A DNA stretch of 45,738 nucleotides, taken from assembly GCA_945878865.1 (NCBI GenBank), contig CAMCUD010000032.1, forward strand, positions 1 through 45,738, in the 5' to 3' direction. This document shows, piece after piece, positions 6,286 through 14,946 of this stretch; the first letter of the stretch is position 1, and every line of letters begins with the position of its first letter. Below the pieces are notes generated by a model, which did not search any database, was not told the DNA's origin, and saw only the letters and a list, made by a program, of their open reading frames with translations. Made by a program: the position numbers and the translations under genes. Source of the DNA: Bifidobacterium breve (GTDB taxonomy: Bacteria > Actinomycetota > Thermoleophilia > Solirubrobacterales > Solirubrobacteraceae).

Positions 6286-6954
6286 ATGCAGATCGCCATC
6301 CCGCTGTACGCGGACATGACCGCACTCGACGCCATCGGCCCGTACGAGGCGCTCAACCGCATCCCCGGCACCGAGATCACGTTCGTCGGTGAGGCGCGCG
6401 GCGAGATCCGGACCGACACCGGCCGGCTCGGCCTCATCGTCGACGCGACGCTCGAGGAGCTCCCGCGCCCCGACGTCCTCGTCGTGCCCGGCGGGATCGG
6501 CTCGCGCCGGCTCGCCAAGGACGAGCGCTGGATCTCGTGGGCTCGCGAGGCCCACGCGCACACCACGTGGACGACCTCGGTCTGCACGGGAGCGCTCCTG
6601 CTCGGCGCCGCCGGGGTCCTGCAGGGCCGCCGCGCCACGACGCACTGGTCGTCCGTCCCGGTCCTCGAGGGCTACGGCGCGACGCCGGTCGCCGACGAAC
6701 GCGTCGTCATCGACGGGAACGTCATCACCGCCGCAGGCGTGTCAGCGGGCATCGACATGGGGCTCATGCTCGCCGCGCACCTGGCCGACGAGGACGCCGC
6801 CCGCGCCGCGCAGCTGATGATGGAGTACGCGCCCGAGCCGCCGTTCGAGGGCGGCACGCTGGCGACCACGCCGCAGAGCGCGCTGGAGAAGCTGCCCACG
6901 ATGCTCGTCCCGCTCGAGGAGGAGTTCGCGCGCGAGCAGTCGCTCACGGCATGA
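6286..6954 (+). CDS. DJ-1/PfpI family protein, isonitrile hydratase-like
   Basis: A 222-aa stand-alone DJ-1/PfpI protein. It keeps Asp15 near the N-terminus (ALDAIGPYE) and a cysteine followed by threonine at 100-101 (TTSVCTGALLL). That pattern matches isonitrile hydratase InhA, where an Asp, a Cys and a Thr are needed to hydrate isocyanides to N-formamides; the substrate here is not proven. GAGGAG lies 6 bp before the ATG. It follows the GlxA-like regulator in one operon. Other DJ-1 activities, such as glyoxalase or chaperone, remain possible. Confidence 0.85.
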   Translation: MQIAIPLYADMTALDAIGPYEALNRIPGTEITFVGEARGEIRTDTGRLGLIVDATLEELPRPDVLVVPGGIGSRRLAKDERWISWAREAHAHTTWTTSVCTGALLLGAAGVLQGRRATTHWSSVPVLEGYGATPVADERVVIDGNVITAAGVSAGIDMGLMLAAHLADEDAARAAQLMMEYAPEPPFEGGTLATTPQSALEKLPTMLVPLEEEFAREQSLTA

Positions 6955-6961
6955 TGCGCGG

Positions 6962-7420
6962 GTGCGCCGCGCCGTCCTGCTCGCCCTGACCCTCGTCGCC
7001 TGCGCCGCCGCGCCCACCGCCGCGCAGGACGAGGCGCCGCCCGACCCGTCGATCGCCGACGGGTCGGCGCAGCGCGACCTCGACGCGGCGCGCGCGGCGT
7101 GGAAGGCGGGCGGGCTCATGAGCTACCGGTGGCGCATCGCCCGAGGGTGTTTCTGTCCCGAGCCGTACACGCGGGCGCGCAACGTCACGGTGCGCGGCGG
7201 GGTCCCGTCGAAGCGCACGGCGAACGAGGTCCGCGAGTTCGCCACGGTGACCCGGCTGTTCCGGATCGTGCAGTCGGCGATCGACCGCAAGGTCGCGGTC
7301 CTCACGGTCTCCTACGACGCGCGGCTCGGCTATCCGCGACGAGTGTGGATCGACGTCTCGCCGATGATCGCCGACGAGGAGACGTCGTACCGGGCGTCGC
7401 GGCTCACCCGGCTGCGCTGA
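6962..7420 (+). CDS. Secreted DUF6174-like protein
   Basis: A 152-aa protein with a signal peptide ending near TAAQ (residues about 1-21). The mature part has the hallmarks of DUF6174-type proteins: a Tyr/Trp-rich first strand, a CFC motif (ARGCFCPEPY), a central helix, and a YDARLGYPRRVWID strand near the end. Function of the family is unknown. The GTG start lies 7 bp after the DJ-1 gene, so it may be cotranscribed. Its last 17 bp overlap the end of the convergent subtilase gene. Confidence 0.75.
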   Translation: MRRAVLLALTLVACAAAPTAAQDEAPPDPSIADGSAQRDLDAARAAWKAGGLMSYRWRIARGCFCPEPYTRARNVTVRGGVPSKRTANEVREFATVTRLFRIVQSAIDRKVAVLTVSYDARLGYPRRVWIDVSPMIADEETSYRASRLTRLR

Positions 7421-8426
7421 GCGCCCGCCGCAGGTTCGCGCGGCCGCCGTCGACCACCTTGCCGCTCAGCGAGCTGGGCTTGTCGGCGTCCTTGCGGACG
7501 ATGTCCTTGATCGTCTTGTAGCTCAGCTTGGAGTTCTGCTGACGGACCATCGCGGCGATCCCCGCCACGATCGGCGAGGCCATCGACGTCCCGTCGAGCT
7601 GCTTGTAGCCGTTGCCGATGTAGGTCGAGAGGATGCCGTCGCCGGGTGCCGCGACGTCGACGGCCTTCTTGCCGTAGTTGGAGAACGACGCGAGGCCGCC
7701 GCTGGCCTTCGTCGCGGCGACCACGAGGATGTTCGCGTCGGTCCACGAGGCCGGATAGGACGGGGTGGTGTCGATGTTCTTGCCGTCGTTGCCCGCGGCG
7801 ACCACGACGAGCGCGCCCTTGCTGCGCGCGTACTGGATCGCCTCGTGCAGTTGCTCGTTCTGGCTGGACGTCCCGAACGAGCAGTTGATGATCCGCGCGC
7901 CCTCCTTTACCGCGTAGCGGATCCCGTTCGCCGCGTCGGCCGGCTTGCCTCGACCGAACACGCTCATGAACTTCACGACCATGAGCTTGGCCTTCCAGCA
8001 GACGCCGGTGACGCCGAGGCCGTTGTCGCCCTGCGCCCCGACGAGCCCGGCGACGTGCGTGCCGTGACCGTTCGTGTCGACCGGCGCGCCGCCGTTGCGG
8101 ATGTCGACGCCGTTGACATCGTCGACGTAGCCGTTCTTGTCGTCGTCGATCCCGTTGGCGGGGATCTCCCCCGGGTTCTGCCAGAGGTTGGTCTGGAGGT
8201 CCGGGTGGTTCAGGTCGGCGCCGGTGTCGACGATCGCGACGGTCCCGCAGCTCGTCCGGCTCGCCCACGCCTGCGGACCTTCGATGTCCGCACCGTTGGG
8301 CTGCGCGTAGAACCACTGCTGCGGAAACAGCGGATCGTTCGGGACACGCGTCTGCGCGTGCGCGGCCGGCGCGAGCAGCAGCGCGCTAGCGAAGGATGCG
8401 GCAGACAGCCTCCACGTTCGTCCCAT
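7404..8426 (-). CDS. Secreted S8 family subtilisin-like serine protease
   Basis: A 340-aa exported protease. A signal peptide ends near AHAQ (residue 25). The catalytic triad is complete: Asp67 (AIVDTGADLNHPDL), His121 (NGHGTHVAG) and Ser281 (DGTSMASP), with oxyanion Asn213 (AAGND). The N-terminus goes almost directly into the catalytic domain (PNDPLFPQQWFY), as in thermitase-like enzymes, so there is no evident I9 propeptide. I use ATG 8426, which gives a signal peptide at the very start; an earlier in-frame ATG (8552) lies inside the upstream VOC gene and adds non-signal sequence. It overlaps the end of the VOC gene by 41 bp, suggesting coupling. Confidence 0.9.
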   Translation of the reverse strand: MGRTWRLSAASFASALLLAPAAHAQTRVPNDPLFPQQWFYAQPNGADIEGPQAWASRTSCGTVAIVDTGADLNHPDLQTNLWQNPGEIPANGIDDDKNGYVDDVNGVDIRNGGAPVDTNGHGTHVAGLVGAQGDNGLGVTGVCWKAKLMVVKFMSVFGRGKPADAANGIRYAVKEGARIINCSFGTSSQNEQLHEAIQYARSKGALVVVAAGNDGKNIDTTPSYPASWTDANILVVAATKASGGLASFSNYGKKAVDVAAPGDGILSTYIGNGYKQLDGTSMASPIVAGIAAMVRQQNSKLSYKTIKDIVRKDADKPSSLSGKVVDGGRANLRRALSAAG

Positions 8427-8775
8427 CTGGATCGAGAGCGTACGCGGCGAAGGTCTCCATGTGCGGCGGTCCGTACGGGCGCTCGCCCGGCGCGCCGTTG
8501 TCCGTGCCACCAGCGGCCAGCGCGGCGGCGTGGAACGCGCGGACGGCGTCACGGTCCGACGCGATGAACGCGACGTGGAGGTGGGTGGTCGGCGGGCCGT
8601 CGGCGCTGAGCGCGAAGTTGGGGAACTGCACGCTCTCGGCGGTGTCGATCATGAGCGGGATGCCGAGGGTCTCGAGGACGGGCACGTAGAAGGCGCGGCT
8701 GGCCTGCAGGTCGCGCACGCGCAGGTGGACGTGGTCGAAGAGGGGGCGGCTCCAGTCCCAGCTGCTTGGGTCCAT
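8386..8775 (-). CDS. VOC (glyoxalase/bleomycin-resistance) family protein
   Basis: A 129-aa single-domain VOC protein of normal length. It begins the fold with FDHVHLRVRDLQASRAFY and ends with AYALDPDGTNVEAVCR, the two places where His and Glu usually bind a metal. Substrate is unknown; members include dioxygenases, isomerases and resistance proteins. Its 3' end overlaps the start of the subtilase gene. It faces the CGNR regulator gene across 27 bp. Confidence 0.85.
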   Translation of the reverse strand: MDPSSWDWSRPLFDHVHLRVRDLQASRAFYVPVLETLGIPLMIDTAESVQFPNFALSADGPPTTHLHVAFIASDRDAVRAFHAAALAAGGTDNGAPGERPYGPPHMETFAAYALDPDGTNVEAVCRILR

Positions 8776-8802
8776 GGCGCGACTGTATCATGGGTATAAG
8801 CC
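8776..8802. promoter_or_regulatory. Short divergent promoter region, VOC / CGNR genes
   Basis: Only 27 bp separate the two divergent starts, and the stretch is AT-rich for this genome (TATCAT at 8786-8791, TATAAG at 8795-8800). TATCAT as a -10 box would give an almost leaderless CGNR transcript. No -35 is convincing. Confidence 0.35.
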
Positions 8803-9348
8803 ATGACGTACGACTACCGGCACACTGGGCGCATCAGCATCGACCTCGCGCTGACCGGCGGCGAGGGTCCGGCGTTTGCGCGGTTCGAAGTCATCCCCAC
8901 GCCGGCAGATCTCGACGCGTGGCTCGCACAGTCGGACCTCGGGATCCCGCGAGCCCGCGCCACGGAGGACGACCTCGTCGTGGCGCGCGCCCTGCGCTGG
9001 GCGATCTGGCACGCGGTCGGCGCGGCGATCGACGGCGAGCCGCTGCGCCGCGCCGACGTCCGCGCGATCGAGGACGCCGCAGCGGCCGCGCCGCTGCTGC
9101 CGCGCATCGCCGGCGGCTGGCGCGACCCGACCGCGCGCTCCGCGCTCTCCACCATTGCGCGCGACGCCATTGCGCTCTTCGCCGACCCCGAGCAGCGCGG
9201 CCGCCTGCGCCGCTGCGCTGCGGACAACTGCATCGTCCCGTTCTACGACGGCTCGCGTCCGGGCCGCCGCCGCTGGTGCGAGGACCGCCGCTGCGGCGAC
9301 CGCCACCGCCACCGCACGCACCGACAGCGACAGAAGGAGCCCGCATGA
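8803..9348 (+). CDS. CGNR zinc-finger (ABATE domain) protein, likely regulator
   Basis: A 181-aa protein with the two-part layout of CGNR/ABATE proteins: an N-terminal domain that may bind a ligand (Arg/Asp-rich, residues 1-125) and a C-terminal zinc-binding finger with Cys138, Cys143, Cys159 and Cys164 followed by a very basic His/Arg tail. The usual CGNR tetrapeptide reads CGDR here. These proteins are thought to bind DNA and regulate stress genes. Its TGA overlaps the ATG of the next gene (ATGA), so it is coupled to the broken SRPBCC gene. Confidence 0.82.
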   Translation: MTYDYRHTGRISIDLALTGGEGPAFARFEVIPTPADLDAWLAQSDLGIPRARATEDDLVVARALRWAIWHAVGAAIDGEPLRRADVRAIEDAAAAAPLLPRIAGGWRDPTARSALSTIARDAIALFADPEQRGRLRRCAADNCIVPFYDGSRPGRRRWCEDRRCGDRHRHRTHRQRQKEPA

Positions 9349-9733
9349 CGACCGGCTACTCCAAGGACGCCGGATGGATGGCCGGAATGCGGCGCACGCT
9401 GCCGATCGGCCTTGACGACGCGTGGGCGCTGCTGCTCTCGCCGCCTGGCTGGCGCCGGGGGTCGCGGAGCTGCGCACCGGCGAGGTCTACACCGGCGACG
9501 ACGGGACGACCGGCGAGGTGCGCAGCCTGCGCCCGGGCGACCGGGTCCGCGTGACGTGGCAGCCGCCGGAGCGCGACGCGGACGCGACGCTCCAGGTGGT
9601 CGTCAGGCCGGCGGCGTCCGGGACGACGGTCGCGCTACACGCCGAGCGACTGGTCGATGCGCGCGACCGCGAGGAGCTGCTCGAGCGGTTCGCGGAGATC
9701 CATGCGCGACTGAACGCGCTCGCGGCGGGCTGA
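9345..9733 (+). pseudogene. SRPBCC (AHSA1-like) gene with a frameshift
   Basis: The gene begins in one frame (GYSKDAGWMAGMRRTLPIG, DDAWALLLSPPG) and continues after about 9445 in another (WLAPGVAELRTGEVYTGDDG, then EVRSLRPGDRVRVTWQPPE, ending RLNALAAG at 9733). Together they make one SRPBCC/START-like domain of about 130 aa, a hydrophobic-ligand-binding fold. Neither frame alone gives the domain. The expected Leu-Ala-Ala before WLAPG is missing, which suggests a 13-base deletion rather than a one-base error. It starts by ATGA overlap with the CGNR gene. A sequencing error cannot be excluded. Confidence 0.72.
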
Positions 9734-9762
9734 GCCGACCTAGTGGCCGCGACGTGCCGCTG

Positions 9763-10170
9763 TCAGGCGTGACGCAACTCGGTGTACTTCGCGTGTGTGC
9801 CGGAGGCGACGGCGACCGGATACTTCTCAGCGTTCTGCCGGATCTTCATCTCGATTGCCTCATCCAGCGGAATTCCCGCAACGTCGGCAAACTGGAGAAC
9901 GTAGATCGCGACGTCAGCCAACTCCGCCGCAACCTCGTCGCGCCGATCAGCTAGGTGCTCAGCAACCTCCTCGTCGCTGAGCCACTGGAAATGCTCCATC
10001 AGTTCGCTCGCTTCAATCGCGATCGAGATCGAGAGATTCTTCGGAGTGTGGTACTTGGCCCAGTTCCGTTCGAACCTAAAGACCCTCAGGGCACGAGCGA
10101 TCTCCGATAAGGAATCGAACCTTTTCGAACCGCCGACGCGACTGGCTGCACCCGCAGAATGATGTGCCAT
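9763..10170 (-). CDS. MazG-like nucleotide pyrophosphohydrolase
   Basis: A 135-aa all-alpha NTP pyrophosphohydrolase of the MazG/dCTPase (RS21-C6) type. The Mg-binding acidic pattern is present: EASELMEH (E-x2-E), then DEVAAELADVAIYVLQFAD (E-x2-D). Such enzymes turn (d)NTPs into (d)NMPs plus pyrophosphate, often removing modified nucleotides. It opens a lower-G+C island and lies downstream of, and in the same direction as, two nucleotide kinases (93 bp after the NMP kinase gene), so the three may act on one nucleotide pool. No good ribosome site precedes the ATG. Confidence 0.87.
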   Translation of the reverse strand: MAHHSAGAASRVGGSKRFDSLSEIARALRVFRFERNWAKYHTPKNLSISIAIEASELMEHFQWLSDEEVAEHLADRRDEVAAELADVAIYVLQFADVAGIPLDEAIEMKIRQNAEKYPVAVASGTHAKYTELRHA

Positions 10171-10263
10171 GCGCGAAAGGTATGCGGCACGACGGACGAC
10201 GGAGACACCTATGCAGCACGTTGCGAGGTTTTTTCTTGACTAGCCTCGAGCAAGCGGCCGCAC

Positions 10264-10908
10264 TTAGCGAAGAAGCGGCTCGAGGCGCAGGAGCGCTTCC
10301 TCAAGGACCTCCCCGGGGTCGCGTGACGCGTCGATCCGGTGCCCGATGTCGGCAAAACGGTGGACGATCGCCGGGCCGTGGATACGCCAGTGCCTGTGAC
10401 GCTTCTGGATCCCTGCGCCAGTGTCATCGTCCCGCACCTCGAGTTCGCCACCGCACGACGGGCACCAGCCCTCGCACAGAACTTCCGGATGCGCACCAAA
10501 TGGGCGACCGCAGATCACACAGCTCTTACGTGTCAGGAGCCGCCCAGTCGACACGACGGTTGGAGCCTCCAGCAACATCATCAGATCGGGTGATCGTCCA
10601 ACCGTGTCGATGAGGAGATCGGCCTCATCCGCCTTCCGCGGATATCCATCCAGGACAAGGAGGTCAGTGTTCCCTAGGTTCCCGAGAGACTCGCCAAGTA
10701 GCCCGTAGGAGACGGTCGTCGGCACCCCCGCAGCCTGTTTGTTGGCCTCTCGAACGAGGGATCCGATCTCGCCAGCGCGTCGCGCCTCCTCCCGGAGGAG
10801 CACTCCGGCGCTGATGAACTCACAGACCCCGACTTCGCGCAGCGCGTAGCCAAGAGAGGTTTTACCCGTGCCTTGCTGCCCGACCAGCAGAAGAAGTCTC
10901 TTGATCAT
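10264..10908 (-). CDS. Adenylate-kinase-like nucleoside monophosphate kinase with zinc LID
   Basis: A 214-aa P-loop kinase. The P-loop is GQQGTGKTS (residues 10-18) and the NMP-binding motif is LDGYPRKADEADLL (compare LDGFPRT of adenylate kinase). The LID carries a four-cysteine zinc site, Cys130/Cys133 and Cys149/Cys152, followed by RDDDTGAGIQKRHRHW, which matches the R-x-DD-LID pattern. The non-standard P-loop and divergence from housekeeping Adk suggest a specialised NMP or dNMP kinase. ATG 10908 overlaps the end of the deoxynucleoside kinase gene by 47 bp, so the two are coupled. An in-frame ATG at 10941 is less likely. Substrate is not known. Confidence 0.83.
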   Translation of the reverse strand: MIKRLLLLVGQQGTGKTSLGYALREVGVCEFISAGVLLREEARRAGEIGSLVREANKQAAGVPTTVSYGLLGESLGNLGNTDLLVLDGYPRKADEADLLIDTVGRSPDLMMLLEAPTVVSTGRLLTRKSCVICGRPFGAHPEVLCEGWCPSCGGELEVRDDDTGAGIQKRHRHWRIHGPAIVHRFADIGHRIDASRDPGEVLEEALLRLEPLLR

Positions 10909-11566
10909 TGTTGCGGAGCTGCCCCGAGATCCGCGCGGCAATAGCCTGCACGTCGGAAGTACGCCGAAAGTCGTACTCCTCTGCCGGGACTACAAGAGTT
11001 TCCTCGGGACCCCACTCTCCTAGTAGATCAGAGTACCGGGCCGCTAGTGACTGCAAGTACTCAAGATCTATTGCCCCCTCTTCATCACGCGCCCTGTTCC
11101 TCAGCCGGCGGAGCGCTTCCTCTGGAGTGATCTGGATGTACACCAATAGGCGCGGCCGTCCGGACAGGTTCACGCATGTCCGCACCAGCCGTTCGAGAAC
11201 AGCAAGATCTCTGTGATCGAGATAGCCACGGGCTTCAAACTCTCGTCCAAACACAAGGAGGTGTTCGAGCACGTTCCGCTCCTGGAGGATCCCACGCCCG
11301 CTCCTCAATACGTGCACTCGGTCCGACAGGCTCTGTTCTAGGAAGAACACGAAGTGAGGGAACGCCCATCTTGTGGGTTCCCTGTAGAAGCGCTCGAAGT
11401 ACGGATTTTCGTCGAACCGCTCCGGCGCCGAAGTGGCCCCAACGAGTGGGGCGAGGGCGCTCACTAGCGTTGACTTGCCGGCGCCGATTAAACCGGCGAC
11501 GGCGATGTCAGGAGCATCAGGCCGGACAGACAGACCGGCGCCCGGCATTGGGTCAGAGTACGTCAT
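10862..11566 (-). CDS. Deoxynucleoside kinase (dNK/dGK family)
   Basis: A 234-aa kinase of the deoxyadenosine/deoxyguanosine kinase family. Visible motifs: P-loop GLIGAGKST (residues about 26-33), the ENPYFERFY segment that follows strand 2, the ERNVLEHLLVFGREF motif corresponding to the catalytic D/ERS region, and an Arg-rich LID (LRRLRNRARDEE). It would phosphorylate a deoxynucleoside to the 5'-monophosphate, feeding the overlapping NMP kinase downstream. I start at ATG 11566; an upstream ATG at 11629 would run into the divergent methyltransferase gene, which begins 17 bp away. Base composition is lower in G+C than the flanks. Confidence 0.87.
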   Translation of the reverse strand: MTYSDPMPGAGLSVRPDAPDIAVAGLIGAGKSTLVSALAPLVGATSAPERFDENPYFERFYREPTRWAFPHFVFFLEQSLSDRVHVLRSGRGILQERNVLEHLLVFGREFEARGYLDHRDLAVLERLVRTCVNLSGRPRLLVYIQITPEEALRRLRNRARDEEGAIDLEYLQSLAARYSDLLGEWGPEETLVVPAEEYDFRRTSDVQAIAARISGQLRNNDQETSSAGRAARHG

Positions 11567-11583
11567 GTCGTACCGTCCGCAGG

Positions 11584-12306
11584 GTGACACAGCAGTGGTT
11601 CGTCCAAGCTCCAAGCCTCGATCCTGCAACGCTGGCGGCTTACCGACAACTCGCCTCAGAGTACGACAGCAACGAGCACGCGACGACCCGCGCCCTGGAG
11701 GCAGCGTCCGGACTCGCCTGGGCTCGGGCCCCTCGCCTTCCAGTCGCGCCCCAGACCGTGCTGGAACTCGGGACGGGAACAGGAGCGTTGACGGAGCACG
11801 TTCTCAACGACTACCCGAGCGCGAGCTTGATCGCAACCGACCCGGTATCGGAAATGCTCGCCATTGCCCGCCGCAGACTCGCGCGGTTTCGGGAGCGGAT
11901 CGAGTGGATCGAGGAAGACGCACAAGCGACGCTCCGCACCTACCGCGCATCGCTGCTGATCGCCGGACTCGCGGACCCCTACCTCGACGCTGCGTTGCTC
12001 GCCCAGCTGCCCGGCGCCCTCGCCCCGAGAGGCCACGTCTTTGTGACGGTGCCGAGCGCGCGTTGGGCGAAGATCGAGCGCGACGGCCGCCTCGCCCTCC
12101 CGTTGGACCTGACACGATTCGTGCTCCGCAACGGAACCTCGGTATCTGCAAGGTCGTTCACCTACGACCATGACGCACTCGCCCGAGGCCTTGAGCAGGC
12201 GGGCTTGACCCTCATCGAAGCGGGGACCACTTCCCAAACAGTAAGCGCAGGTCGTCAACCTGCAGAGGTCGCGTGGGCACTCGCCCAGCGGACCCCAGAG
12301 CGGTAA
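11584..12306 (+). CDS. Class I SAM-dependent methyltransferase
   Basis: A 240-aa Rossmann-fold methyltransferase. Motif I is VLELGTGTGALTE (residues about 59-71), the acidic residue after strand 2 is in LIATDPVSEML, and motif III-like sequence is LPGALAPRGHVFVTVPS. Target is unknown; the C-terminal part (ARGLEQAGLTLIEAGTTSQT) resembles small-molecule methyltransferases. GTG 11584 is the only start that does not run into the divergent deoxynucleoside kinase gene. Its stop is one base from the stop of the convergent GAF-like gene. It belongs to the low-G+C island. Confidence 0.82.
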   Translation: MTQQWFVQAPSLDPATLAAYRQLASEYDSNEHATTRALEAASGLAWARAPRLPVAPQTVLELGTGTGALTEHVLNDYPSASLIATDPVSEMLAIARRRLARFRERIEWIEEDAQATLRTYRASLLIAGLADPYLDAALLAQLPGALAPRGHVFVTVPSARWAKIERDGRLALPLDLTRFVLRNGTSVSARSFTYDHDALARGLEQAGLTLIEAGTTSQTVSAGRQPAEVAWALAQRTPER

Positions 12307-12307
12307 G

Positions 12308-13108
12308 TCACGCGTCGAACACCTTGAGCGCAGGACCCTTTTGCCGAAGCGCTGCGGTGGTATCTCGCACCGCTCGGGCCAGTTCCTGAGTGAGGTCGGC
12401 CGCTTCGATCTCCCCCGCAAGGCCATCCTGAAACGCACCGGGCTCGGCATCAGCGAAGAGGATGCCGACTGGCTGCCCTCCAACACGAAGGACAACGCAC
12501 AGAAAAGCCTGATCATGATTGTGAGCATCAGCAGCCTCAACGGCAGTCATGCCCCACGAGGTAATGAGCTCACTGGGGTCCCCTGAGACTCGCTTCTCCA
12601 TGATCGACTTTTCGAGACGCCACGTCCGGCCGATGATTCCGAAGCGCATGGAGTAGGTTCGCCCACGCGCCGCCCCTTTAGGGAAGTAGTCGAGCAGACA
12701 GTAGAGGGCGTCATCGAAAAGAATGTCGGGGACGTAGACCGTGCACCGAAACGCAGCTTTGTCTTTGGTGCGCGGCTCGATGAGTCTGCGCGCAACCTCG
12801 TCGCGAAGTCTCCGTACCTGGTGGACGTGCGCCAGGCGGTCGAACTCGACTGTCGCTTGGCGTCGGTACTCGACAAAGACCTCTTCGAGGTCCGCCTTGA
12901 GTTCGGCTGCTGCTTCCTCAGTCAACTCCACACTGATTCCCCCAGCCGAGACTGCTCGCACTCTCCCCGTCAAGCCAGCAAAGAGACGTGCTCCTCGCTT
13001 GGAGGCCAGGAATAGGATGCCGCCGCCGACGACCACGGGCCAAGAGACGACCTCAAGGAGGTCGACGGTTGCTTGGACTATCTCTTGCCAGAGAGCCTGG
13101 TCGTTCAT
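12308..13108 (-). CDS. Membrane-tethered GAF-like sensor protein, unrecognised
   Basis: A 266-aa protein. Residues about 16-35 are one membrane helix (VVSWPVVVGGGILFLA). A charged coiled-coil-like stretch follows (residues about 60-110, with EEAAAELKADLEEVFVEYRR). Residues about 120-230 have GAF-domain character: CTVYVPDIL, YSMRFGIIGRTW, an ITSWGMTAVEA strand pair and VGILFADAEPGAF. This would be an inner-membrane protein with a cytoplasmic ligand-sensing or dimerising domain. No enzymatic motif is seen. I use ATG 13108. It sits at the right end of the low-G+C island, convergent with the methyltransferase. The family is not named with confidence. Confidence 0.65.
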   Translation of the reverse strand: MNDQALWQEIVQATVDLLEVVSWPVVVGGGILFLASKRGARLFAGLTGRVRAVSAGGISVELTEEAAAELKADLEEVFVEYRRQATVEFDRLAHVHQVRRLRDEVARRLIEPRTKDKAAFRCTVYVPDILFDDALYCLLDYFPKGAARGRTYSMRFGIIGRTWRLEKSIMEKRVSGDPSELITSWGMTAVEAADAHNHDQAFLCVVLRVGGQPVGILFADAEPGAFQDGLAGEIEAADLTQELARAVRDTTAALRQKGPALKVFDA

Positions 13109-13209
13109 ACCGCTGAAGCGCACAGAGCCCTGATCGAGCAGGATCTCAATACTTACTCGCTTAGGGCGACTTATACCGCGACACGGCAGACCTCGCCGCC
13201 GAGAAATGC

Positions 13210-14946
13210 CTATGAAGTCCGTGCACGCTTGCGCATCGCCGCGAACTCCGGCCACGCCCGCGTGTTCGCGACGTCGTCCGGCGTGAGCCAGGCCCGCCGC
13301 GCCGTCGCCACCGCCCACCGGACGTTGGCCAGCCGGTCCGTGCCGTGCGCGTCGCTGTCGAGGAGGATCTTCACGCCGGCCTGCGCCGCCTGGCGCGCAT
13401 GGACGTCGTCGAGGTCGCGGCGGTCCGGCGCGCCGTTGATCTCGAGCATCGTGCCGGTCCGCGCCGCCGCGGCGATGACCTCGTCGAGGTCGACGTCGTA
13501 GCCGGGGCGGCGGCCGAGCTTGCGGCCCGTCGGGTGGCCGATCGCGTCGATCCACGGGTGTTCGATCGCGGCGACCATGCGCTTCGTCATCTCCGCGCGC
13601 GGCGTCTGGAACGCCGTGTGGATCGAGGCGATGCACCAGTCCAGCTCGGCGAGCAGCTCGTCGTCGTAGTCCGGAGCGCCGTCGGGCAGGATGTTCGTCT
13701 CCGTCCCGATCAGGACCTCGATGCCGTCGAGCTTCTCGTTGACCGTGCGGACCCGCTCGATCTGGCGCTTGAGCGTGTCGGCGTCGACGTGGTTGCCGAA
13801 CCCGTGCGTCGCCGAGTGGTCGGTGATCGCGAGGTACTCGTAGCCACGCGCGATCGCCTCGGCGGCCATCTCCTCGATGGTGTTGCGCCCGTCTGAGGCG
13901 ACGGTGTGGCAGTGCAGGTCGCCGCGCAGGTCGTCCACGCTGACGAGCTCGGGGACCTCGAACCCGGGGTCGAGCTCACCGCGGTCCTCGCGCAACTCGG
14001 GCGGGATCCACGGCAGGCCGAGCGTCGCGTAGACCTCCTCCTCGGTCGCGCAGCGCACCGTCTCACCGGTGGCGTCGTCGAGGATCCCGTACTCGCTGAC
14101 GTGCAGCCCGCGCTTGACCGCATTCTCGCGCAGGCGGATGTTGTGCCGCGCGCTGCCGCTGAAGTGCTGGAGCAGGTTGCCGAACTGGTCGGGCTCGACG
14201 ACCCGCAGGTCGATCGACAGGCCGGAGTGCGTGACGCCGCGCGCCGCGTTCTCCCCAGCGGTTCCGGCCGTCTCGATCTCCGGCAGCGCGGCCAGCGCGG
14301 CCGTGAGCGCAGCCGGATCGTCGGCCGTGGCGATGACGTCGAGGTCCTTCACGGTGTCCGCCAGCCGCCGGGCGCTGCCGGCCAGCTCGACACGGCGGGC
14401 CGTCGGGTGTGCGCGGAGGCCCGCGACGATCGCCTCACCTTCCTCGAGCGCCCGGGACAGGAGCGTCCGCGGCTTGGGCGCCTCGCCGAGCCCCGCCTCG
14501 AGCGAGGCGAGCACCGACGCCTCGAACTTCGGCCCGAGCCCCTTCACTCCGCGCAGGCGCTCCTGCTCGGCGGCCTCCTTCAACGACGCGAGCGAGTCGA
14601 TGCCGAGCTCGGTGTACATCAGGCGCACGCGCTTGGGGCCGACGCCGGGCAGCCGCGTGATCTCGAGCAACCCCTCGGGGTACTTCGCCTTGAGCTTGGC
14701 CCGCGCGGGGATCTCGCCGTCGACGACGAGCGCGGCGATCTTCTCCTGAAGCGTCGCGCCGATCCCCGGCAGCTCCGTGGCGCGGCCCTCGCGGGCAAGC
14801 GTGCCGACGGACTGCGTCGCCTCGCGGACCGCTTTCGCGCCGTTGCGGTAGGCCAGGACGCGGTGGGAGATCGCGCCGTCGAGCTCGTAGAGGTCCCCCA
14901 GCTCGTCCAGGGCGGCGGCGATCTCGCGGTTCGGCATCTCGGCCAT
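13210..14946 (-). CDS. polX: DNA polymerase X / 3'-5' exonuclease PolX with PHP domain
   Basis: A 578-aa bacterial PolX of normal length. It has helix-hairpin-helix motifs near residues 58-66 (LPGIGATLQEK) and 99-107 (LPGVGPKRV), the polymerase nucleotidyltransferase motif GSARRLADTVKDLDVI (Asp201 and Asp203) with a third acidic site in IDLRVV (Asp246), and a C-terminal PHP metallo-phosphoesterase domain starting at DLHCHTVASDG (His345, His347). Such enzymes fill short gaps in base-excision repair and proofread or process ends with the PHP domain. It acts in the cytoplasm on DNA. The base composition returns to the genome norm here, marking the island's right edge. An ATG at 14937 is also possible. 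Confidence 0.96.
   Translation of the reverse strand: MAEMPNREIAAALDELGDLYELDGAISHRVLAYRNGAKAVREATQSVGTLAREGRATELPGIGATLQEKIAALVVDGEIPARAKLKAKYPEGLLEITRLPGVGPKRVRLMYTELGIDSLASLKEAAEQERLRGVKGLGPKFEASVLASLEAGLGEAPKPRTLLSRALEEGEAIVAGLRAHPTARRVELAGSARRLADTVKDLDVIATADDPAALTAALAALPEIETAGTAGENAARGVTHSGLSIDLRVVEPDQFGNLLQHFSGSARHNIRLRENAVKRGLHVSEYGILDDATGETVRCATEEEVYATLGLPWIPPELREDRGELDPGFEVPELVSVDDLRGDLHCHTVASDGRNTIEEMAAEAIARGYEYLAITDHSATHGFGNHVDADTLKRQIERVRTVNEKLDGIEVLIGTETNILPDGAPDYDDELLAELDWCIASIHTAFQTPRAEMTKRMVAAIEHPWIDAIGHPTGRKLGRRPGYDVDLDEVIAAAARTGTMLEINGAPDRRDLDDVHARQAAQAGVKILLDSDAHGTDRLANVRWAVATARRAWLTPDDVANTRAWPEFAAMRKRARTS

What the first reader, a model, noticed from the sequence alone, without database searches (positions are those of the whole stretch)
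9763..13108. Lower-G+C nucleotide-metabolism island
A deoxynucleoside kinase, an overlapping adenylate-kinase-like enzyme with a zinc LID, and a MazG-type pyrophosphohydrolase form a leftward set, next to a methyltransferase and a membrane GAF-like protein. The DNA is clearly lower in G+C than both sides. The enzymes could run deoxynucleoside to dNMP to dNDP and hydrolyse dNTPs, in effect a private dNTP cycle. Possible roles are salvage of a modified nucleoside or control of dNTP pools against phage. No integrase or repeat boundary was seen.
Basis: partly seen in the sequence, partly recalled or inferred. Interest (0 to 1): 0.62.

Follow-up and report, generated by a model that had tools for sequence, protein, structure and literature searches.

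The report
Imported deoxynucleotide-kinase and defence-linked gene island
A soil actinobacterium carries an imported, five-gene stretch of foreign DNA that encodes a small enzyme line for making and breaking a DNA building block plus a methyltransferase/membrane-sensor pair that also sits in another bacterium's anti-virus gene island, so it may be an uncharacterised nucleotide-based defence, although that function is not shown.

Summary
Five intact genes (9763-13108) lie in DNA far off the local composition (GC 0.62 vs 0.73±0.016; GC3 0.64-0.75 vs about 0.90-0.96). They are absent from the same locus in both congeners, and the right-hand junction is at the last codons of polX. The dNK is unique among 146 family genomes. 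So this is a horizontally acquired insertion in a variable locus. The 'five-gene unit' does not hold: I found the set nowhere else. It resolves into two modules. (1) A leftward operon of deoxynucleoside kinase, overlapping adenylate-kinase paralog with zinc LID, and a dCTPase/RS21-C6-type MazG. Catalytic residues are kept in both kinases, but base-recognition residues are changed (dNK Gln84→Phe, Asp114→His; AK Thr31→Ala, Gln92→Glu), which suggests a non-standard base. (2) A methyltransferase + single-TM GAF-like pair, which recurs without the kinases, as an overlapping operon, in another Solirubrobacteraceae genome, between 16-nt tRNA-like direct repeats and next to defence candidates (PDC-M19, JAB/E1, Ppl-like). 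The most likely role is conflict/defence cargo with a deoxynucleotide make-and-break pathway. Ordinary salvage/housecleaning remains a strong rival. Function is inferred, not shown.

The parts
9763..10170 (-). MazG-like nucleotide pyrophosphohydrolase of the RS21-C6/DCTPP1 (dCTPase) type, 135 aa
   Evidence: PF12643 E 5.8e-18; PDB 4qgp E 3.5e-24, RS21-C6 2a3q 1e-17, dCTP pyrophosphatase 1 6sqw 2e-17; motif E53-x2-E56 and E83-x2-D86
10264..10908 (-). Adenylate-kinase-family NMP kinase with four-Cys (zinc) LID, 214 aa; a paralog beside the canonical adk at G000:C5:18299-18913
   Evidence: PF00406 E 9.6e-13; canonical adk 27% identical; T31A, Q92E, GK(GT)->GK(TS), catalytic Arg/Asp and Cys kept
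10862..11566 (-). Deoxynucleoside kinase (non-TK1-like), 234 aa; 47-bp overlap with the NMP kinase
   Evidence: PF01712 E 7.2e-33; Giardia dAK 8puu E 3.3e-25, M. mycoides-type 2jas; base-pocket residues changed, catalytic kept
11584..12306 (+). Class I SAM-dependent methyltransferase, 240 aa, GTG start, divergent from the dNK with a 17-bp spacer and convergent with the TM-GAF gene (1-bp gap)
   Evidence: Methyltransf_25 E 1.3e-9; homolog next to the TM-GAF homolog in G015, E 5.8e-12
12308..13108 (-). Single-TM protein (about residues 17-35) with a C-terminal GAF-like domain, 266 aa
   Evidence: KD window 1.96; homolog in G015 39% with GAF_2 E 0.0015; best Foldseek matches are GAF domains, none with E<0.001
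13209..13222 (.). Right-hand junction: homology to both congeners ends within the last codons/stop of polX
   Evidence: blastn homology starts at 13220/13223; polX ends RKRARTS* here, RKRA* in G002
6972..13220 (.). Variable locus between a DJ-1-type gene and polX: absent in G002; subtilase + ASCH-like gene only in G001

Best explanation
Shown: a horizontally acquired insertion sits at the end of polX in a locus with different content in each congener. It carries two modules. Module 1 is a leftward operon: dNK -> NMP kinase -> dCTPase-type MazG. Module 2 is a methyltransferase plus a membrane-anchored GAF-like protein, a pair that recurs in a defence island elsewhere. Inferred mechanism: the dNK makes a dNMP from a deoxynucleoside with a non-standard or non-adenine base, the NMP kinase makes the dNDP, host Ndk makes the dNTP, and the MazG enzyme cuts the dNTP back to dNMP + PPi. 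This is a make-and-break pathway that sets the level of one particular deoxynucleotide. The TM-GAF protein would sense a small ligand (possibly but not demonstrably that nucleotide) and act at the membrane; the methyltransferase would modify the ligand or the sensor. The most likely biological role is conflict/anti-phage cargo. Gene identity, composition, locus variability and pair recurrence are shown. Substrate, ligand, link between the modules and defence role are inferred.
For: Composition. Empty or different locus in congeners and junction at polX. dNK unique in 146 family genomes. 47-bp dNK/AK overlap. Catalytic residues kept but base-recognition residues changed in both kinases (residue roles of the dNK from PMC11662666). 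MazG closest to dCTP pyrophosphatases. MTase + TM-GAF pair in G015 as an overlapping operon, bracketed by exact 16-nt T-arm-like repeats 1860 bp apart, next to PDC-M19A/B, BilC-like JAB, ThiF/E1 and Ppl-like genes. Precedent for non-canonical deoxynucleotide signals made with dNMP kinases (Kongming; PMC12948488), nucleotide-pool sensing (Clover; PMC12265719) and MazG/nucleotide-kinase domains predicted in defence (PMC13092281).
Against: The five genes were not found together elsewhere. The two modules co-occur only here, so a functional link between them may be accidental. None of the window proteins hits a known defence family specifically (PADLOC: only a generic methyltransferase match to mad2, E 3e-12). 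The GAF assignment is weak. dNK/AK/MazG are also plain salvage and housecleaning enzymes. The divergent and convergent gene orientations give no operon link between modules. The defence context is that of G015, not of the window.
Confidence: 0.42

Rival explanations
1. Ordinary deoxynucleoside salvage and nucleotide-pool housecleaning acquired by transfer: dNK salvages environmental deoxynucleosides, the NMP kinase raises them to dNDP, MazG removes aberrant dCTP-like nucleotides; MTase and TM-GAF are unrelated neighbours that came along.
For: Domain identities with intact catalytic residues. dNK and MazG of this type occur as ordinary single genes on many plasmids and chromosomes. A native dNK without such neighbours exists in another family of the class. 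Modules 1 and 2 do not co-occur elsewhere.
Against: Gln84 of the dNK is Gln or Glu in every other aligned dNK in which the position could be read but Phe here, and both AMP-pocket residues of the NMP kinase are changed, unexpected for plain dA/AMP salvage. Such dNKs are nearly absent from the phylum.
Confidence: 0.33
2. Remnant of a phage or plasmid nucleotide-metabolism block (dNK, dNMP kinase and dCTPase are common phage genes), stranded in the chromosome.
For: PHROG matches: pyrophosphatase phrog_3301 (E 3e-20), thymidylate-kinase-type phrog_761 (E 3e-14). Phages carry 25-31% dNKs.
Against: No phage structural, replication or integration gene beside it. NMP kinase and TM-GAF have no PHROG match. 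No close relatives found in viral contigs or phage records. Genes are intact and compactly arranged.
Confidence: 0.12
3. Module 2 alone (MTase + TM-GAF) is the functional defence unit and module 1 is an independent cargo that landed in the same hot spot.
For: The pair recurs without dNK or MazG in G015, bracketed by repeats, in a defence-like island.
Against: Only two examples of the pair are known, in different relative orientation; both modules here share the same odd composition.
Confidence: 0.3

Closest known systems
Non-TK1-like deoxynucleoside kinases (PF01712; Giardia dAK 8PUU, Mycoplasma mycoides dAK)
   Same: Fold, P-loop, catalytic Glu (E49), Tyr61, Arg97, LID Arg158
   Different: Adenine-contact residues Gln84, Arg91 and Asp114 of 8PUU are Phe72, Ser79 and His102 (the Asp-to-His change is shared with the closest relatives in the class)
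Bacterial zinc-LID adenylate kinase (PF00406)
   Same: P-loop, R36, R88, R119, R123, R156, D158/D159, R167 and four LID cysteines
   Different: T31A and Q92E in the AMP pocket; a second copy beside a canonical adk
RS21-C6 / dCTP pyrophosphatase 1 and bacterial MazG-like PF12643
   Same: Nearly full-length match and acidic metal motif
   Different: Genomic setting; substrate untested
Kongming (KomABC) dITP-signalling defence
   Same: Conceptual: a deoxynucleotide kinase step in making a nucleotide signal (PMC12948488)
   Different: No adenosine deaminase, HAM1-like or SIR2 protein among the five genes; the kinase is bacterial here, phage-borne there
Clover (CloAB) nucleotide-pool defence
   Same: Conceptual: sensing or adjusting dNTP pools (PMC12265719)
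   Different: No dGTPase (HD) or nucleotidyltransferase
Adenylosuccinate-synthetase + dNK cassettes of actinobacteria (L042, L043, L045, L068, L069; seen here)
   Same: Contain a PF01712-type kinase and nucleotide enzymes next to effector- or regulator-like genes
   Different: Different dNK branch, AdSS/DCD instead of NMP kinase/MazG, no MTase/TM-GAF pair found

Membership tests
Deoxynucleoside kinase (PF01712) | Full domain with P-loop, catalytic Glu, (D/E)R motif and LID Arg | tested here: met
Deoxyadenosine kinase (substrate class) | Adenine-contacting Gln and Asp (8PUU Q84, D114) | tested here: not met
   Phe72 and His102 at these positions
Adenylate kinase (AMP-specific) | Catalytic Arg/Asp set and zinc LID | tested here: met
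Adenylate kinase (AMP-specific) | AMP-pocket Thr31 and Gln92 (roles from general knowledge of E. coli Adk) | tested here: not met
   Ala and Glu; both positions invariant in 29 comparison sequences (28 Adks from the phylum and E. coli Adk)
MazG-like / dCTPase (RS21-C6) | PF12643 domain and ExxE...ExxD metal motif | tested here: met
MazG-like / dCTPase (RS21-C6) | Hydrolysis of dCTP or modified dCTP | not testable with these tools
   needs an enzyme assay
GAF domain protein | Pfam GAF match over the gathering cut-off | tested here: inconclusive
   E 0.07 and 0.0015, both under the cut-off; GAF structures as best but non-significant Foldseek matches of a low-confidence model
Kongming defence | Deaminase KomA, KomB and SIR2 KomC | tested here: not met
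   none of the five proteins matches such domains in Pfam, NCBIfam or PADLOC
Clover defence | HD dGTPase + nucleotidyltransferase | tested here: not met
Horizontally acquired island | Deviant composition and absence from the syntenic site in close relatives | tested here: met
Integrative element | Integrase and flanking att repeats | tested here: not met
   no integrase among the genes, no tRNA, no boundary repeat in the window; repeats are seen only around the pair in G015

The most novel reading that the evidence does not exclude
An undescribed anti-phage system in which a bacterial dNK + NMP kinase convert a modified or phage-derived deoxynucleoside into a signal deoxynucleotide, a dCTPase-type MazG keeps that signal off in healthy cells, and a methyltransferase-coupled membrane GAF protein is the sensor-effector. 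It would be a nucleotide-signalling defence with its own kinases.
Probability: 0.13. Interest if true: 0.78.

Novelty: new variant of a known kind. Interest (0 to 1): 0.42.

Why it matters
If the kinases prove to prefer a non-standard base, this is a compact, testable case of a bacterium-encoded make-and-break pathway for one deoxynucleotide. Recent work shows deoxynucleotides acting as immune signals (Kongming, Clover), and MazG and nucleotide-kinase domains are predicted but unvalidated in defence (PMC13092281). The MTase + TM-GAF pair has no Pfam name (apart from generic MTase), no specific PADLOC name and no close relatives in the collections searched, so it is a concrete new candidate.

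Tried and rejected
Single-protein scans of genome contigs and viral contigs with dNK, AK and MazG gave nothing useful (one MazG contig). Plasmid and phage dNK relatives: the contexts I opened were unrelated (S. aureus dNK pair, Acinetobacter dfrA region; the Stutzerimonas record has no annotation). The Alkaliphilus plasmid NMP kinase has no annotated dNK neighbour. The closest dNKs in the class (family f80) are native genes without AK/MazG/MTase neighbours. A T-arm-like motif at 10111 in the window lies inside mazG and is close to chance. 14-27 nt repeats in 6900-13300 are G+C-rich coding matches, not boundaries. No convincing promoter or terminator signals. No Rfam match. AlphaFold of the TM-GAF protein was poor (pLDDT 41 full-length, 48 soluble part). 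Literature searches for this gene combination found nothing.
Full report
Observation. The AK-family gene begins 47 bp inside the dNK gene. The methyltransferase start lies 17 bp from the dNK start on the other strand, and its stop 1 bp from the stop of the TM-GAF gene. The region has G+C 0.621 against 0.730 (sd 0.016, minimum 0.696) for 177 equal windows of the rest, and dinucleotide distance 138 against 50 (sd 15, maximum 88). GC3 is 0.64-0.75 in all five genes against 0.90-0.96 in the flanking genes.

Locus. The window is a contig of a Solirubrobacteraceae genome (family named from the matching record of its family member G015). In congener G002 the DJ-1-type gene is followed directly by polX. 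In congener G001 only a subtilase and an ASCH-like gene lie between them. The whole stretch 6972-13220 is therefore variable, and the five genes are missing from the site in both. Homology to both congeners stops at the last codons of polX (RKRARTS* here, RKRA* in G002), next to the low-G+C DNA, so the right junction is located to within a few bases. The left junction is not resolved, because VOC, ABATE and AHSA1-type genes of native composition also lie in the variable stretch. No close relative of the dNK was found among 61 relatives or 146 family genomes. In a class sample of 399, the closest are 29-31% identical genes of family f80, in another setting without the other genes. In a phylum sample of 396, only one weak match was found. 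Transfer is therefore well supported.

Module 1. The dNK is closest to bacterial-type deoxyadenosine kinases (8PUU E 3e-25). With the residue roles given in the Giardia dAK paper (PMC11662666), catalytic and sugar/phosphate residues are kept: E49, Y61, R97, R158 and the P-loop. Three adenine contacts differ: Gln84 to Phe72, Arg91 to Ser79, Asp114 to His102. Gln84 is Gln or Glu in every other aligned dNK in which the position could be read; the Asp-to-His change is shared with the f80 kinases, so only the Phe is peculiar. The AK-family protein is a paralog, 27% identical to the canonical adk at G000:C5:18299. It keeps the catalytic Arg/Asp set and four LID cysteines, but T31 and Q92, invariant in the 29 comparison sequences, are Ala and Glu. 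The MazG protein is of the dCTPase/RS21-C6 type with its acidic motif. The chain dN -> dNMP -> dNDP (-> dNTP by host Ndk) and dNTP -> dNMP + PPi is thus chemically possible, and both kinases look re-tuned at the base. The substrate is unknown.

Module 2. Searches of 61 relatives gave one other TM-GAF homolog (39%, E 2e-51) and, in a separate search, one other methyltransferase homolog (32%, E 6e-12). Both are in genome G015 and adjacent, with overlapping coding ends. For a 3.3-Mb genome such adjacency is unlikely by chance (my estimate, of the order of one in a thousand). The pair lies between two exact copies of GGTTCGAATCCCGCCC 1860 bp apart. The motif reads like a tRNA T-arm, and the right copy looks to me like the 3' half of a tRNA-Met, but ARAGORN and Rfam call no tRNA there. 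The neighbourhood holds PDC-M19A/B candidates (DUF488 and partner), a BilC-like JAB protein, a ThiF/E1-like protein and Ppl-like ATPase fragments. A match to dNK at E 1e-3 or MazG at E 1e-10 is absent in G015, and its only AK match is a canonical-type adk. The GAF assignment rests on sub-threshold Pfam matches and on a low-confidence model whose best Foldseek matches are GAF domains (E about 5e-3, none below 1e-3). The transmembrane segment is clear in both copies.

Interpretation. The idea of one five-gene system does not: module 2 travels without module 1, and module 1 was not found elsewhere. I consider conflict/defence cargo slightly more likely than plain salvage. Reasons: the variable locus, the defence-island company of module 2, the altered base pockets, and precedents in which deoxynucleotides are immune signals or sensors (Kongming, PMC12948488; Clover, PMC12265719) or MazG/nucleotide kinases are predicted defence parts (PMC13092281). 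This is inference; no activity is shown. No membership claim is made for Kongming, Clover or any PADLOC system.

Side finding. Other rare dNKs of the class and phylum sit in what look like effector-bearing cassettes: IrrE/macro-like protein + kinase-adenylosuccinate-synthetase fusion + DUF7002 + dNK in three genomes (L042, L068, L069), and adenylosuccinate synthetase + dCTP-deaminase-like + dNK, once with a CBASS-type patatin (L043, L045). These deserve their own study.

Noticed in passing
L042 2345-6603; L068 6914-11154 (-); L069 3354-7576: Recurrent four-gene cassette in three genomes of two families: IrrE-type (capP-like) protein with a DarG/macro-like C-terminus, P-loop kinase fused to adenylosuccinate synthetase, DUF7002, and a deoxynucleoside kinase. 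Looks like an undescribed nucleotide-based conflict system (domain scans were run on L042 only).
   Followed up: partly
L043 5983-10643 (-): Adenylosuccinate synthetase (possibly frameshifted) + dCTP-deaminase-like proteins (one with TM/coiled coil) + CBASS-type patatin phospholipase (PADLOC 'Effector' E 3e-47) + dNK.
   Followed up: partly
L045 3380-6633: HTH regulator, adenylosuccinate synthetase, dCTP-deaminase-like + TM protein, dNK in another actinobacterial family.
   Followed up: partly
L053 6182-8057: MTase + TM-GAF operon between exact 16-nt tRNA-T-arm-like direct repeats, possible att scars of a tiny mobile cargo.
   Followed up: partly
L053 2305-6010: Small (ubiquitin-like by my reading) protein, JAB protease (BilC-like), E1/ThiF, PDC-M19B and DUF488 (PDC-M19A) genes: a defence-candidate cluster.
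   Followed up: partly
window 8386-9733: VOC, ABATE/CGNR zinc-finger and AHSA1-type genes of native G+C also lie in the stretch absent from both congeners, so the hot spot holds layered insertions.
   Followed up: no
window 13210-14946: polX C-terminus altered by the insertion (RKRARTS* instead of RKRA* as in G002).
   Followed up: no
L055 1827-11212: Alkaliphilus plasmid: NMP kinase (24.6% to the window AK) near a DNA cytosine methyltransferase and an ATP-binding protein.
   Followed up: no
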